Below, one piece after another: positions 44,550 through 48,490 of a stretch of 64,000 nt of DNA. The translations under genes and the position numbers were made by a program. The stretch is taken from assembly GCF_028885415.1 (NCBI RefSeq), contig NZ_CP118527.1, forward strand, positions 3,224,001 to 3,288,000, in the 5' to 3' direction. Within the stretch, counting starts at the first letter, position 1. Each line of letters starts with the position of its first letter. The notes below the pieces were generated by a model, which worked only from the letters and a program-made list of their open reading frames with translations, searched no databases and had not been told where the DNA came from. The DNA comes from Streptomyces coeruleorubidus (GTDB lineage Bacteria; Actinomycetota; Actinomycetes; Streptomycetales; Streptomycetaceae).

Positions 44550-44615
44550 ATGAACCCTCATCGCAGTAACAGCCCGCTACACCCGGTCACCGGGATGTGG
44601 GGAGGCCGGTCGTGA
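44550..44615 (+). CDS. 21-codon upstream ORF ahead of the cytochrome b gene
   Basis: An ATG with GGAG eight bases upstream encodes MNPHRSNSPLHPVTGMWGGRS. The stop TGA overlaps the GTG start of the cytochrome b gene (GTGA), giving tight translational coupling. The downstream gene's own GGGGAGG lies within this ORF. Translation is inferred from these features only. Confidence 0.5.
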   Translation: MNPHRSNSPLHPVTGMWGGRS

Positions 44616-45877
44616 CGAACTACGACTCCACGGCAGACGACACGTTCGCCGATTTCCTCAACTTCGGCGTCGGTGTGCTGTCCCTCGTGTGCCTGTCCTG
44701 CTCGGTGATCTGGGGGCTGGTCGCCCAGGACCGGATCCTCCTCGACGCGCGCAGGCGCATCCTGGCGCAGGCCGTGCACCGGACGACGGCGGTCGCCTCG
44801 ATCGTCTTCCTCCTGATGCACATCGGAGTCAAGCTGGCGCTCGCGCACACCACGTGGGTCGCGGTGTTCATCCCCTTCGGTCTCATCGCCAGCGACAACG
44901 ACGAGCTCATGGGCCGGTCGTTCCTCGTCGGCCTCGGCACCCTGGCCAGCATGCTCATGATCTTCGTGGGCGTCACGGGCGTGCTGCGCAACCGCTTCGC
45001 GTCCCCGGCGCCCGTCGCGGCCCGCTGGCGGGCCATGCACATGCTGGCCTACCCGGCCTGGTGCGCCGCCCTGGTCCACGGCCTCTACGCGGGCCGCCCG
45101 GCCAAGCCGATCTTCGTCATCCTGTACTGCCTGTCCCTGGCCGGCGTGGCCGGAGCCCTCGCCCTGCGCGCCGCTCCGCGCCCGGTCAAGCGCAAGGTCG
45201 CCGACAAGTTCGCCGAGCTCATCGGGCCCGGGGACGGTCTGGGCCGCCGGGACCTGGAGGAGAGCCGGGCCCGGGCGGGCACCGGCTCCGCGCTGCCCGG
45301 CTACGAGGGCCGGGGCACGCCCGTGGGGGCCACGGCCTCCCCGTCGGGGCCGCTGTACGAGAAGGCGGAACGCCCCTCGGCCAAGGAGCCCGCGAACGGC
45401 TTCGCCGCGGCCTACCGGGCCGTCTCGAGCCCGCCCGTGGGCCGGCAGGCGTTCGCACCGGGGCCGACCGACCGCATGGAGCTGCCGCTGGACATGCAGC
45501 CCACCGAGGCCATCCCGACCGTGGACGGCCCCTCCAGCACCTCGGGCAACTGGCCGATCCCGTCCCCGCCACCGGTCGGCGAGGCCCCACCGTCGGCCTA
45601 CGACCCGCTCCAGGACACGGGCTTCAACATCCCGCCCTACGACCCCCTGCAGGACACCGGACAAAGCATCCCGGCCTATGGCAATCCAGGCGCCGCCGGC
45701 TATGGATCGAGTGACGTGTACGACACGGGTGAGACGAACGCCGTCTACGACACGTACTACCCGAACGACACGTACAACAGCGGTCCCGCCACTGAAACAC
45801 TGCCCGGTGCGTCCTACGACTTCGACGCACCGGGATCGGGCGAACCTTGGAACACGCCTTCCGGAGGCTTTAAGTGA
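44612..45877 (+). CDS. Di-heme cytochrome b-like membrane protein with low-complexity tail
   Basis: A 421-residue protein. Four to five transmembrane helices lie within residues 15-186. Helix 2 carries H56 and H70 and helix 4 carries H143 and H156, spaced 14 and 13 residues, which fits bis-heme binding as in cytochrome b561/ferric reductase-like folds. Residues about 190-421 form a cytoplasmic Pro/Gly-rich tail with two copies of a YDPLQDTG repeat. The GTG at 44612 follows GGGGAGG. It overlaps the NuoF-like gene by four bases. The annotation of heme b is inference from the His pattern; the family is otherwise unnamed to me. Confidence 0.8.
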   Translation: MTNYDSTADDTFADFLNFGVGVLSLVCLSCSVIWGLVAQDRILLDARRRILAQAVHRTTAVASIVFLLMHIGVKLALAHTTWVAVFIPFGLIASDNDELMGRSFLVGLGTLASMLMIFVGVTGVLRNRFASPAPVAARWRAMHMLAYPAWCAALVHGLYAGRPAKPIFVILYCLSLAGVAGALALRAAPRPVKRKVADKFAELIGPGDGLGRRDLEESRARAGTGSALPGYEGRGTPVGATASPSGPLYEKAERPSAKEPANGFAAAYRAVSSPPVGRQAFAPGPTDRMELPLDMQPTEAIPTVDGPSSTSGNWPIPSPPPVGEAPPSAYDPLQDTGFNIPPYDPLQDTGQSIPAYGNPGAAGYGSSDVYDTGETNAVYDTYYPNDTYNSGPATETLPGASYDFDAPGSGEPWNTPSGGFK

Positions 45878-47490
45878 ACGAGGCTTTGCCTGACGTACCC
45901 GAAGTCCGCGTGGTCGGTCTTCCCCAGCTCACGTCCGGCTTCGACCTTGTCGATCGGCTCGATCTGCCCATGCACCTGAAGGTGCACGGGCCGCTCGAGC
46001 CGATGGGCGGCGAGCAGCTCGCGCAACTCGCCGAACGCATCAACCTGAAGGGCCGCGGCGGCGCGGGCTTCCCCTTCCACAAGAAGCTGCGCTCGGTCGC
46101 CGAGGCCGCGATCAAACGCGGCGTCCGGCCGGTCGTCGTCGTGAACGGAAGCGAGGACGAGCCGGCCTGCCGCAAGGACACGGTGCTGATCAACCGTGCT
46201 CCCCATCTGATCCTGGACGGCGCACTGCTGTGCGCCGAGGCGCTGGGTGCCCGCACGCTCGTGGTGGGGGTCACCCGTGAGTCCACACAGCGCTCCATGG
46301 AGGCCGCGCTGGCCGAACGCGGCCTCAGCAACGGCCGCAGATCGGCACTGCGCGCGCGTGTGCAGCGCAACCCGGTCCGCATGGTCACCGGCGCCGCCGC
46401 GTCGCTGATCCGCTCCATCGACGGCGGCCCGGCCATCCCGCCGGGCCGCAAGGTCAGCGCCTCGCAGAACGGCGTCGGCGGCGCGCCCACGCTGCTGTCC
46501 AACGCCGAGACCTTCGCCCAACTGGCCATCGCCGCCCGCATCGGCCCGGAGCGCTACGGCAACACCGGCCTGTACGACGAGCCGGGCACCGTCATGCTCA
46601 CGGTCTCCGGGGCGGTAGCCCGCCCCATGGTGATCGAGGTCCCGACGGGCGTGCCGCTGCGGTACGTCCTCCAGCTCGCCGGCGCCCCGCCGGTGCCGCA
46701 GGGCGTGCTCACCGGCGGCTACCACGGCAAGTGGATCGACGCGGCGACGGTCAACGAGGCGATCGTCTCCCGCAACTCCCTGGACGCGGTGGGCGGTTCG
46801 CTCGGCGCCGGCGCGATCCTGCCGATCACTCAGGAGACCTGCCCCCTGGGCGAGTCACTGCGTGTCACCCAATGGCTGGCGGAGGAGAGCGCGGGCCAGT
46901 GCGGCCCCTGCTACCTCGGCCTGCCGGCCGCCGCGCGCGGTCTGGAGGACATCCTCAACGGCGGCGGACCGGCCGCCCTGGAAGCCCTCAAGCAGGTCGC
47001 CAAGAACGTGAAGCGGCGCGGCGCGTGCTCGCACCCCGACGGCTCCGCGATGTTCATCGAGTCGACCATCAAGGCGTTCACGGACGACTTGGCCGCCCAT
47101 GTCCTCGGAAACGGCTGCGGACGGCCCGTGGAGGGCGTTCTGCCGCTCTTCGAGGGCGGCAGGGCCCCTACGGGCCTCCCGGGCGGCGGTGAGTCCGAGG
47201 AGAACGGCCCCAGCCGCCAGAAGATCTACGTCGACTGGACACTGTGCCGGGGCCACGGCCTGTGCGCGGACATCCTCCCCGAGGTGTTCCAGCTCGGCGC
47301 CGACGGCTTCCCGACCGTGGCGCAGGCGCAGGTGCCGCGGTACGCCGAGGCCAAGGCTCTACGCGCGGTGCGCCGCTGTCCGGCGCTGGCCCTGCGCATC
47401 GAGGAGGACACGCGCGCTCAGGGCGGCGCGCCGTCCCGCAACCTCCCGGTCCTGTCCCAGGGCCGCGGCCGCCGCGCTCTCGGCCGCTGA
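45874..47490 (+). CDS. NuoF-like flavoprotein fused to a C-terminal ferredoxin
   Basis: A 538-residue protein. The NADH/FMN domain (about 40-235) has the GRGGAGF nucleotide-binding loop at residues 60-66. SLBB-like and Fe-S regions follow. In NuoF the cluster motif is SCGxCxPC; here it reads SAGQCGPC, so the first Cys is Ala and only C343, C346 and C385 remain. The C-terminal ~70 residues are a P450-type 3Fe-4S ferredoxin (CRGHGLC, then RRCPAL). It could transfer electrons between NADH, the ferredoxin and the upstream cytochrome b. Its GTG start overlaps the preceding stop. Confidence 0.87.
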   Translation: MNEALPDVPEVRVVGLPQLTSGFDLVDRLDLPMHLKVHGPLEPMGGEQLAQLAERINLKGRGGAGFPFHKKLRSVAEAAIKRGVRPVVVVNGSEDEPACRKDTVLINRAPHLILDGALLCAEALGARTLVVGVTRESTQRSMEAALAERGLSNGRRSALRARVQRNPVRMVTGAAASLIRSIDGGPAIPPGRKVSASQNGVGGAPTLLSNAETFAQLAIAARIGPERYGNTGLYDEPGTVMLTVSGAVARPMVIEVPTGVPLRYVLQLAGAPPVPQGVLTGGYHGKWIDAATVNEAIVSRNSLDAVGGSLGAGAILPITQETCPLGESLRVTQWLAEESAGQCGPCYLGLPAAARGLEDILNGGGPAALEALKQVAKNVKRRGACSHPDGSAMFIESTIKAFTDDLAAHVLGNGCGRPVEGVLPLFEGGRAPTGLPGGGESEENGPSRQKIYVDWTLCRGHGLCADILPEVFQLGADGFPTVAQAQVPRYAEAKALRAVRRCPALALRIEEDTRAQGGAPSRNLPVLSQGRGRRALGR

Positions 47491-47495
47491 GCACG

Positions 47496-47532
47496 CCTAC
47501 GGCGGGCTTCCCTCAGGGAAGCCCGCCGTAGG
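47496..47532 (+). terminator. Terminator of the redox operon
   Basis: A perfect 17-base stem (CCTACGGCGGGCTTCCC and its complement) with a three-base loop, starting six bases past the NuoF-like stop. Confidence 0.85.
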
Positions 47533-47558
47533 CGCACGGACACCGCACACACCGCACA

Positions 47559-47600
47559 TGAAGAAGGCGGGCCATCCGATCGGATGGCCCGCCTTCTTCA
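47559..47600. terminator. Second, bidirectional terminator next to tRNA-Ala
   Basis: A 42-base perfect palindrome (TGAAGAAGGCGGGCCATCC arms) that begins 8 bases below the 3' end of the minus-strand tRNA and backs up the redox-operon terminator from the other side. Confidence 0.85.
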
Positions 47601-47607
47601 TCTTCTG

Positions 47608-47680
47608 TGGAGCTAAGGAGAATTGAACTCCTGACCTCCTGCATGCCATGCAGGCGCTCTACCAACTGAGCTATAGCCCC
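47608..47680 (-). tRNA. tRNA-Ala (anticodon GGC), copy 1
   Basis: A 73-base cloverleaf. The acceptor stem GGGGCTA / TAGCTCC contains the G3:U70 wobble that defines tRNA-Ala, the D-arm has AGCTCAGTTGGTAGAGC, and the anticodon loop ATGGCAT is on a CCTGC/GCAGG stem. The T-arm loop TTCAATT and A73 are present. CCA is not encoded. A promoter-like TTGGTG-N18-TAAAGT lies about 40 bases upstream. Confidence 0.98.
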
Positions 47681-48410: not shown

Positions 48411-48417
48411 CTTGACG

Positions 48418-48490
48418 TGGAGCTAAGGAGAATTGAACTCCTGACCTCCTGCATGCCATGCAGGCGCTCTACCAACTGAGCTATAGCCCC
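48418..48490 (-). tRNA. tRNA-Ala (anticodon GGC), copy 2
   Basis: Identical over 73 bases to the tRNA-Ala at 47608-47680, including the G3:U70 pair and GGC anticodon. A putative promoter TTCACT-N18-TAAAGT lies at 48553-48582, and the roughly 60-base leader includes the hairpin CATGCGGC / GCCGCATG. Confidence 0.98.

What the first reader, a model, noticed from the sequence alone, without database searches (positions are those of the whole stretch)
44550..47490. Cytochrome b plus NuoF-ferredoxin fusion: candidate undescribed membrane redox system
Seen: a multi-helix protein with His pairs 14 and 13 residues apart, typical of bis-heme b proteins, overlaps by four bases a NuoF-like flavoprotein fused to a C-terminal 3Fe-4S ferredoxin. 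A coupled 21-codon ORF and a dedicated double terminator frame them. NuoF normally works inside complex I with NuoE and NuoG; none is here. Inference: a two-gene route from NADH (or ferredoxin) to membrane heme, possibly for reductive chemistry or quinone reduction. The unusual tail of the cytochrome (YDPLQDTG repeats) may bind the partner.
Basis: partly seen in the sequence, partly recalled or inferred. Interest (0 to 1): 0.82.

Follow-up and report, generated by a model that had tools for sequence, protein, structure and literature searches.

The report
NAD(P)H-to-heme electron export gene pair
A Streptomyces two-gene unit with relatives across actinobacteria most likely carries electrons from NAD(P)H inside the cell, through a complex-I-like flavoprotein and its attached ferredoxin, to a two-heme membrane protein that passes them outward; it is a rewired variant of an electron-export system already described in outline.

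Summary
A bis-heme b-type membrane protein (GTG 44612 or 44597 to 45877) overlaps by 4 bp a NuoF-like flavoprotein fused to a C-terminal ferredoxin (45874-47490). All four His are invariant in an alignment of 46. In 150 Streptomyces genomes, 108 of 116 fused-type hits have the cytochrome just upstream; in 80 named loci a six-frame search finds it in 79. In other actinobacteria the unit is usually a distinct ApbE, the cytochrome, the NuoF-like protein and a separate ferredoxin (ApbE in 20, ferredoxin in 18 of 25 loci). The fused form is one clade without that ApbE. Meheust et al. 2021 reported MsrQ-like cytochrome clusters with a NuoF-like subunit, so the kind is known. Not in the passages I read: the ferredoxin partner, the ApbE-free fused form, loss of one N3 cysteine beside a near-invariant His, and loss of the E. 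coli E183-equivalent in 140 of 140 fused-type proteins. The 21-codon ORF is a remnant of the cytochrome gene's 5' end. Best reading: NADPH (or NADH) to FMN, Fe-S, ferredoxin, two hemes, then an unidentified outside acceptor. Cofactors, nucleotide and acceptor are inferred.

The parts
44550..44615 (+). 21-codon ORF MNPHRSNSPLHPVTGMWGGRS, GTGA-overlapping the cytochrome start: remnant of the ancestral 5' end of the cytochrome gene
   Evidence: in L102, L106, L204, L213 and L216 the frame runs from the homologous ATG straight into the cytochrome with an extra N-terminal helix; the 21-codon form is shared by L004 (the window's own locus), L089 and L090
44612..45877 (+). bis-heme b membrane cytochrome, ferric-reductase-like, 5 helices (alternative start GTG 44597)
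44747..44839 (+). helix with H61 and H75 (numbered from 44597)
   Evidence: AlphaFold helix 51-81; invariant His
45011..45085 (+). helical stretch with H148 and H161 (numbered from 44597)
   Evidence: AlphaFold helices 139-148 and 151-163; invariant His
45287..45874 (+). mostly disordered, acidic, Pro/Gly-rich C-terminal tail, predicted cytosolic
   Evidence: low pLDDT; composition and loop charges
45599..45661 (+). two YDPLQDTG repeats
   Evidence: motif counts
45874..47490 (+). NuoF-like FMN/Fe-S flavoprotein fused to a C-terminal ferredoxin
46036..46524 (+). Complex1_51K FMN/nucleotide domain; A174-A175 where E. coli NuoF has E182-E183
46861..47100 (+). N3-type Fe-S region: C343, C346, C385 kept, first Cys replaced by A340, H387 near-invariant in the family
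47224..47400 (+). Fer4_15 ferredoxin domain, C-x2-H-x2-C...CP
47494..47534 (+). 19-bp hairpin starting 3 bases after the stop codon, possible terminator without a T run
47559..47600 (.). second strong hairpin, between the pair and a convergent tRNA-Ala

Best explanation
A two-protein transmembrane electron-export reductase. The NuoF-like protein takes a hydride from NADPH (perhaps also NADH) on FMN, passes single electrons through an atypical N3-type Fe-S cluster to its fused ferredoxin domain, which docks on the cytosolic side of the five-helix cytochrome; electrons cross by the inner heme (H61/H148) and outer heme (H75/H161) to an extracytoplasmic acceptor. It works like the cytosol-to-outside half of MsrQ-like flavinylation systems and of NOX or ferric reductases, but with a complex-I-type module in place of the FAD/NAD domain. 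Elsewhere in actinobacteria the same core sits with ApbE; in many Streptosporangiales loci with DUF4142 and DUF1996 genes; in many Micromonosporaceae loci with a thioredoxin-like and a CcdA/DsbD-like gene. In Streptomyces no acceptor gene was seen alongside. Shown: gene architecture, conservation, candidate ligand residues, one clade for the fusion. Inferred: cofactor content, direction, pairing of His across helices, docking, nucleotide choice, acceptor.
For: Adjacency: 108 of 116 fused-type hits in Streptomyces; 76 of 80 named loci by gene calls, 79 of 80 by six-frame search; 30 of 35 class-wide loci L034-L068, with none at the control loci L069 and L070. Four His invariant in 46 of 46 and present in 120 of 120. 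A ferredoxin gene accompanies the NuoF-like gene in 18 of 25 class-wide separate-type loci and in 8 of 8 Streptomyces paralogue loci; the same domain is fused here, so ferredoxin and flavoprotein probably act together. Fused form is one clade, support 100/99. Loop charges mostly place the C-terminus and the H61/H148 ends inside. E. coli NuoF E183 aligns to A175; the position is A, S, G or R, never E, in 140 of 140 fused-type proteins. E. coli His400, which interacts with the N3 iron (PMC8357420, section read), aligns to H387. Meheust et al. [quoted passage not shown]
Against: I found no biochemistry for any member. The window cytochrome is below the Pfam cut-off and Foldseek gives no significant hit for it. 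No acceptor gene lies next to the Streptomyces pair. The separate-ferredoxin group keeps the E183-equivalent in 13 of 32, so NADPH use is not a family-wide inference, and the window has Ser, not Arg, at the F203-equivalent. One loop predicted outside (163-171) carries two positive charges. Seven of 25 separate-type loci have no recognised ferredoxin gene. Four NuoF-like copies in Streptomyces have no cytochrome nearby (L123, L124, L127, L128, six-frame), so the flavoprotein may also act without it. The interface and cofactor distances could not be modelled.
Confidence: 0.62

Rival explanations
1. A non-pumping NAD(P)H:menaquinone reductase: the cytochrome reduces quinone in the membrane instead of passing electrons outward.
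For: MsrQ is called the quinone-binding subunit of its system in PMC8238504 (passage); several bis-heme b folds in the match list act on quinone (b6f, bc1, formate dehydrogenase N).
Against: Relatives cluster with ApbE, DUF1996/DUF4142 or thiol-redox genes rather than with known quinone enzymes. I made no search for a quinone site.
Confidence: 0.2
2. An NADPH-oxidase-like superoxide generator that uses O2 as the outside acceptor.
For: The aligned structures include SpNOX, NOX5, NOX2 and DUOX.
Against: Many FRD-fold proteins do not make superoxide (established knowledge); partner genes differ by family, which fits several acceptors better; no O2-site residue was tested.
Confidence: 0.08
3. A soluble NAD(P)H:ferredoxin reductase serving P450s or other cytosolic enzymes, with the cytochrome a separate or regulatory partner.
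For: The ferredoxin motif resembles P450-partner ferredoxins (recalled); four NuoF-like copies have no cytochrome nearby (L123, L124, L127, L128).
Against: Cytochrome adjacency is near-universal in the loci examined, often with a 4-bp overlap (52 of 76 adjacent pairs), and is shared by the separate-ferredoxin relatives.
Confidence: 0.07
4. Electrons flow inward: an outside donor reduces the hemes, and NuoF-Fd makes NADPH or reduced ferredoxin.
For: NuoF-type modules are reversible in general (established knowledge); many Micromonosporaceae loci carry thiol-redox genes.
Against: Would need a low-potential extracytoplasmic donor; none was recognised among the neighbours that I examined.
Confidence: 0.03

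Closest known systems
MsrQ-like flavinylation-associated system (Meheust et al. 2021, eLife, PMC8238504; abstract and passages read)
   Same: PF01794-type membrane cytochrome with two heme sites, broadly in Actinobacteria; in 31 reported clusters accompanied by a NuoF-like PF10589 protein; NAD(P)H proposed as donor
   Different: the window has no ApbE or FMN-binding gene beside it, carries a fused ferredoxin, and its cytochrome scores below the PF01794 cut-off
Complex I subunit NuoF
   Same: FMN/nucleotide, SLBB and 4Fe-4S domains; complex I rows of the Foldseek list align at 2.5-4.6 A rmsd over about 380-437 columns
   Different: scores 165 bits against an equivalog cut-off of 559; first N3 Cys and E182/E183-equivalents replaced; no NuoE or NuoG beside it
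HydB/NfnB/StnB of bifurcating hydrogenases and transhydrogenases
   Same: NuoF core with further Fe-S domains; among the top structural matches
   Different: alignments that run past the NuoF core have rmsd of about 14-16 A; Fer4_15 tail; no hydrogenase or transhydrogenase gene beside it
NADPH oxidases, STEAP and ferric reductases (FRD superfamily)
   Same: two His pairs 13-14 apart on two helices (general FRD feature recalled); similar helix arrangement
   Different: no fused FAD/NAD domain; electrons would come from a separate NuoF-Fd protein

Membership tests
MsrQ-like flavinylation system | PF01794-type bis-heme membrane protein | tested here: inconclusive
   window 18.8 bits versus cut-off 28; homologue L043 38 bits; four His invariant
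MsrQ-like flavinylation system | cytosolic NAD(P)H module, PF00175 or NuoF-like PF10589 | tested here: met
   PF10589 62.9 bits, PF01512 107 bits
MsrQ-like flavinylation system | apbE or FMN-binding gene in the cluster | tested here: not met
   whole-genome Pfam searches place ApbE and FMN_bind only at about 0.75, 1.90 and 7.60 Mb, each beside its own PF01794+PF00175 reductase; the pair lies at 3.27 Mb
Complex I NuoF | equivalog score TIGR01959 | tested here: not met
   165.2 against 558.65
Complex I NuoF | NuoE and NuoG partners | tested here: not met
   the overlapping gene is the cytochrome; the flanking genes scanned are leuS, a histidine phosphatase and RsfS
Complex I NuoF | four Cys at N3 | tested here: not met
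   A340 in place of E. coli C351
MsrQ proper (methionine sulfoxide reductase) | molybdopterin partner MsrP alongside | tested here: not met
   flanking genes scanned by Pfam are leuS, a histidine phosphatase and RsfS, with tRNA-Ala genes between
Bifurcating HydB/NfnB type | NuoE-like [2Fe-2S] domain or subunit | tested here: not met
   no such domain in the protein or in the flanking genes scanned by Pfam
FRD superfamily (NOX, STEAP, ferric reductase) | two His pairs 13-14 apart on two helices | tested here: met
FRD superfamily (NOX, STEAP, ferric reductase) | FRD fold | tested here: inconclusive
NADPH oxidase or ferric reductase enzyme | fused FAD/NAD-binding domains | tested here: not met
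   no such Pfam domain in the cytochrome; its tail is mostly low-confidence
any of these | heme b, FMN and Fe-S content, substrate | not testable with these tools
   needs purified protein

The most novel reading that the evidence does not exclude
A flavinylation-independent, NADPH-specific electron-export enzyme in which a complex-I-type NuoF with a three-Cys-plus-His N3 cluster and a fused His-type ferredoxin replaces the flavin domain of NADPH oxidases and ferric reductases. It would be a natural counterpart of engineered NADPH-accepting NuoF variants, with interchangeable outside partners: ApbE-type, DUF1996/DUF4142 or thiol redox.
Probability: 0.35. Interest if true: 0.72.

Novelty: new variant of a known kind. 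Interest (0 to 1): 0.52.

Why it matters
If right, about seven in ten Streptomyces species (110 of 150 sampled genomes) and relatives across the Actinomycetia carry a membrane electron-export unit whose donor, route and acceptor are unassigned. It would give a function to many proteins now named 'NuoF family' (names seen) that are not complex I, offer a natural test of what sets NADH versus NADPH choice in NuoF folds, and link two domains of unknown function (DUF1996, DUF4142) to redox work.

Tried and rejected
Rejected: complex I fragment; partner of the three FMN_bind-ApbE loci of the same genome (each has its own reductase); 21-codon ORF as a leader designed for the pair (one search shows homology to the cytochrome's 5' end, though it may still couple translation); YDPLQDTG as a family-wide docking motif; the NTPSGGFK end of the cytochrome as a purely functional motif (its SGG codons overlap the GGAGG ribosome site of the next gene).

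Led nowhere: literature by locus tag (the tags SCO2572-SCO2574 were my guess); sequence match of the cytochrome in the PDB (none) and Foldseek alone (no significant hit); search for FMN-binding proteins in the divergent loci (nothing; sensitivity not controlled, so weak). Weak point: my gene calls come from a simple position-specific GC script and miss or truncate genes, e.g. L046, L057, L120, L132, L178; the six-frame check is the better count. The ApbE query is one protein of the cytochrome-linked type and is insensitive to ordinary ApbEs (one search does not find the one in L176).
Full report
What is there. The window is part of a single-contig 9.41 Mb chromosome; the closest named homologues are Streptomyces. 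Divergent from leuS lie two genes on the + strand. The first encodes a membrane protein that ends at 45877; the second starts inside its stop codon at GTG 45874 and ends at 47490. The second carries Complex1_51K, SLBB, NADH_4Fe-4S and Fer4_15 domains but scores only 165 bits against the 559-bit equivalog cut-off for NuoF. The first has five hydrophobic helices and His at 61, 75, 148 and 161, numbered from GTG 44597. Most loop charges put H61, H148 and the tail on the cytosolic side; the short loop 163-171, predicted outside, has two positive residues against that.

Start and 21-codon ORF. Homologues start at the codon that corresponds to GTG 44612, giving 421 residues. The 21-codon ORF 44550-44615 overlaps that start as GTGA. 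In five loci whose cytochrome frame could be followed upstream (L102, L106, L204, L213, L216) a homologous ATG, in four of them after the same GGAGTTGCC stretch, opens directly into the cytochrome and encodes an additional N-terminal helix. The 21-codon form occurs in L004 (the window's own locus), L089 and L090, and a 28-codon form in L010. Only 10 of the 53 loci tried and 8 distinct loci matched my search motif, so this rests on few loci. The simplest account is a change in this clade that cut the first helix off and left the old start as a short coupled ORF.

Conservation. Genus survey: in 150 Streptomyces genomes (the window's included), 116 hits above 400 bits in 110 genomes; 108 of the 116 have the cytochrome upstream on the same strand within 2.5 kb. 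The eight exceptions: in G204, G273 and G302 the cytochrome hit lies on another contig; G242:C130 ends at its contig edge; in G257 the two matches overlap by more than my filter allowed; G243 and G253 are second copies without it; G123 has no cytochrome hit. Twenty-nine hits of 400 bits or less were left out of that count. By genome, 112 have both, 3 only a NuoF-like hit and 3 only a cytochrome hit. Class survey: 142 of 197 genomes have any match at 1e-30, complex I included (not all rows were printed). I chose by hand 35 places with scores above those typical of complex I (L034-L068): a six-frame search finds the bis-His cytochrome in 30, in L057 1.8 kb downstream rather than upstream, and not in L041, L052, L065, L066 and L067, nor at the controls L069 and L070. 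Eleven of those loci supplied seeds of the profile and match it by construction. Named loci: the best 80 of at least 550 from genome contigs; 76 have the cytochrome immediately upstream by gene calls, 52 of these with a 4-bp overlap, and 79 have the fused ferredoxin; the six-frame search finds the cytochrome in 79, the exception being L183, which begins near a contig end. The cytochrome alignment has 46 rows, all four His invariant, with G40, R62, P93, G114, R131, Y152 and R191. In the wider phylum 17 of 246 genomes match a separate-type query at the strict level of 1e-70, five of them outside the class.

Two architectures. In divergent actinobacteria the unit is ApbE - cytochrome - NuoF-like - ferredoxin: of 25 loci (L041-L064 and L068), ApbE was recognised in 20, the cytochrome in 23, a ferredoxin gene in 18 and all three in 15. 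In 8 Streptomyces paralogue loci of that type the ferredoxin follows in 8 and ApbE is found in 7 by gene calls, 8 by six-frame search. ApbE, Ferric_reduct and Fer4_15 assignments were checked by Pfam on examples. Genomes can hold more than one copy: 21 Streptomyces genomes with a fused-type hit also have a hit of 400 bits or less; of those pulled, most but not all are of the separate type (L123 is fused). On a 75-row tree of the NuoF part, the 39 fused rows form one clade (100/99) which, rooted on complex I and the other outgroup rows, lies among separate-ferredoxin rows. No ApbE of the cytochrome-linked type was found in the 80 named loci; the one ApbE there, in L176, belongs to an ordinary reductase/FMN_bind/ApbE trio upstream of the fused pair. 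So the fused clade has lost or never had the linked ApbE; the order of events is not resolved.

Changing outside partners. In fused loci of Streptosporangiales-type organisms, DUF1996 lies within three genes in 19 of 26 (L177-L201 and L203) and DUF4142 in 20 of 26, upstream in Streptosporangiaceae and downstream in Actinomadura. In 39 loci L138-L176, mostly Micromonosporaceae, a thioredoxin-like gene is that close in 28 and a CcdA/DsbD-like one in 20. In 15 Streptomyces loci none of these was found (family names from Pfam on one example each). The three FMN_bind-ApbE loci of the window's genome each carry their own reductase.

Active-site changes. By alignment with E. coli NuoF, E183 corresponds to A175. 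It is A, S, G or R in all 140 fused-type proteins, E in 13 of 32 separate-type and in 5 of 5 others. The 140 are the window protein, 118 of the 120 homologues listed (two fell to a length filter) and 21 loci; four of them (P0163, P0165, P0166, P0187) have no recognised ferredoxin motif. Ten of the separate-type rows are cut at the N-terminus by my gene calls. That E. coli E183 contacts the adenosine ribose and that its replacement lets NuoF use NADPH is recalled from Morina et al. 2011, of which I saw only the title in a reference list (not held). F203 is R in 89 of the 140 and S in 48, the window included. The first N3 cysteine (E. coli C351) is A, S or T in 171 of 172 family rows and R in one; H387 is His in 170 of 172. 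In E. coli the residue at that place, His400, interacts directly with the N3 iron (PMC8357420, section read). A His-assisted three-Cys cluster is therefore a reasonable inference, not a result. Three related proteins without the cytochrome (L065-L067) also lack this Cys but have no His there, which speaks against a strict replacement. The fused ferredoxin has the motif in 136 of 140, with His at the variable place in all 136; in 26 separate ferredoxins it is R in 9, H in 8, Q in 6 and F, Y or E in one each.

Tail. Fused-type cytochromes have longer tails than separate-type ones (median 207 versus 29 residues, 92 and 29 proteins), but some fused-type ones (L131, L133, L136) have almost none in my gene calls. 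DPLxDTG is confined to a part of Streptomyces.

Literature. PMC8238504 (abstract and passages) describes 1797 MsrQ-like flavinylation clusters, 31 with a NuoF-like protein. Its clusters are defined by ApbE or FMN-binding type genes, so a form without them would be missed. In the passages on MsrQ-like systems that I saw no ferredoxin is named, and the word Streptomyces does not occur in the main text. PMC11334425 has no occurrence of NuoF in its main text (passages read). My ten text searches cover open-licence papers only; I saw no study of this pair.

Verdict. A real, widespread electron-transfer pair of unassigned function; a new variant of a described kind. The acceptor is the main unknown.

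Noticed in passing
L177-L201 and L203 (DUF1996 in 19, DUF4142 in 20 of 26 loci): DUF4142 and DUF1996 genes flank the fused pair in Streptosporangiales, on either side depending on family: a link of two unknown-function domains to a redox module.
   Followed up: partly
L138-L176 (28 of 39 loci): A thioredoxin-like gene, and in 20 loci a CcdA/DsbD-like membrane gene, lies near the pair, mostly in Micromonosporaceae.
   Followed up: partly
L083:5474-6532: The window's genome encodes a protein with three FMN-binding domains next to ApbE and a ferric reductase, like the published multi-flavinylated class.
   Followed up: no
L123, L124, L127, L128: NuoF-like copies in Streptomyces genomes with no cytochrome found in about 12 kb by six-frame search.
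   Followed up: partly
L176:785-6470: An ordinary reductase/FMN_bind/ApbE trio lies directly upstream of a fused cytochrome/NuoF-Fd pair in a metagenome-assembled genome.
   Followed up: yes
window 47607-47680 and 48417-48490: Two tRNA-Ala genes with the same anticodon (GGC) on the minus strand, about 0.8 kb apart, with small ORFs between.
   Followed up: no
L034:8405-9310: A PF03640 secreted-repeat protein follows the pair in one Streptomyces.
   Followed up: no
G123:C1:186093-187215: The NuoF-Fd homologue appears split over two reading frames in this Streptomyces genome.
   Followed up: no
separate-type loci, e.g. L041, L045, L061: A short one-helix Ser/Thr-rich protein precedes ApbE; no FMN-binding protein was found nearby (weak search), so the ApbE target is unclear.
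   Followed up: partly
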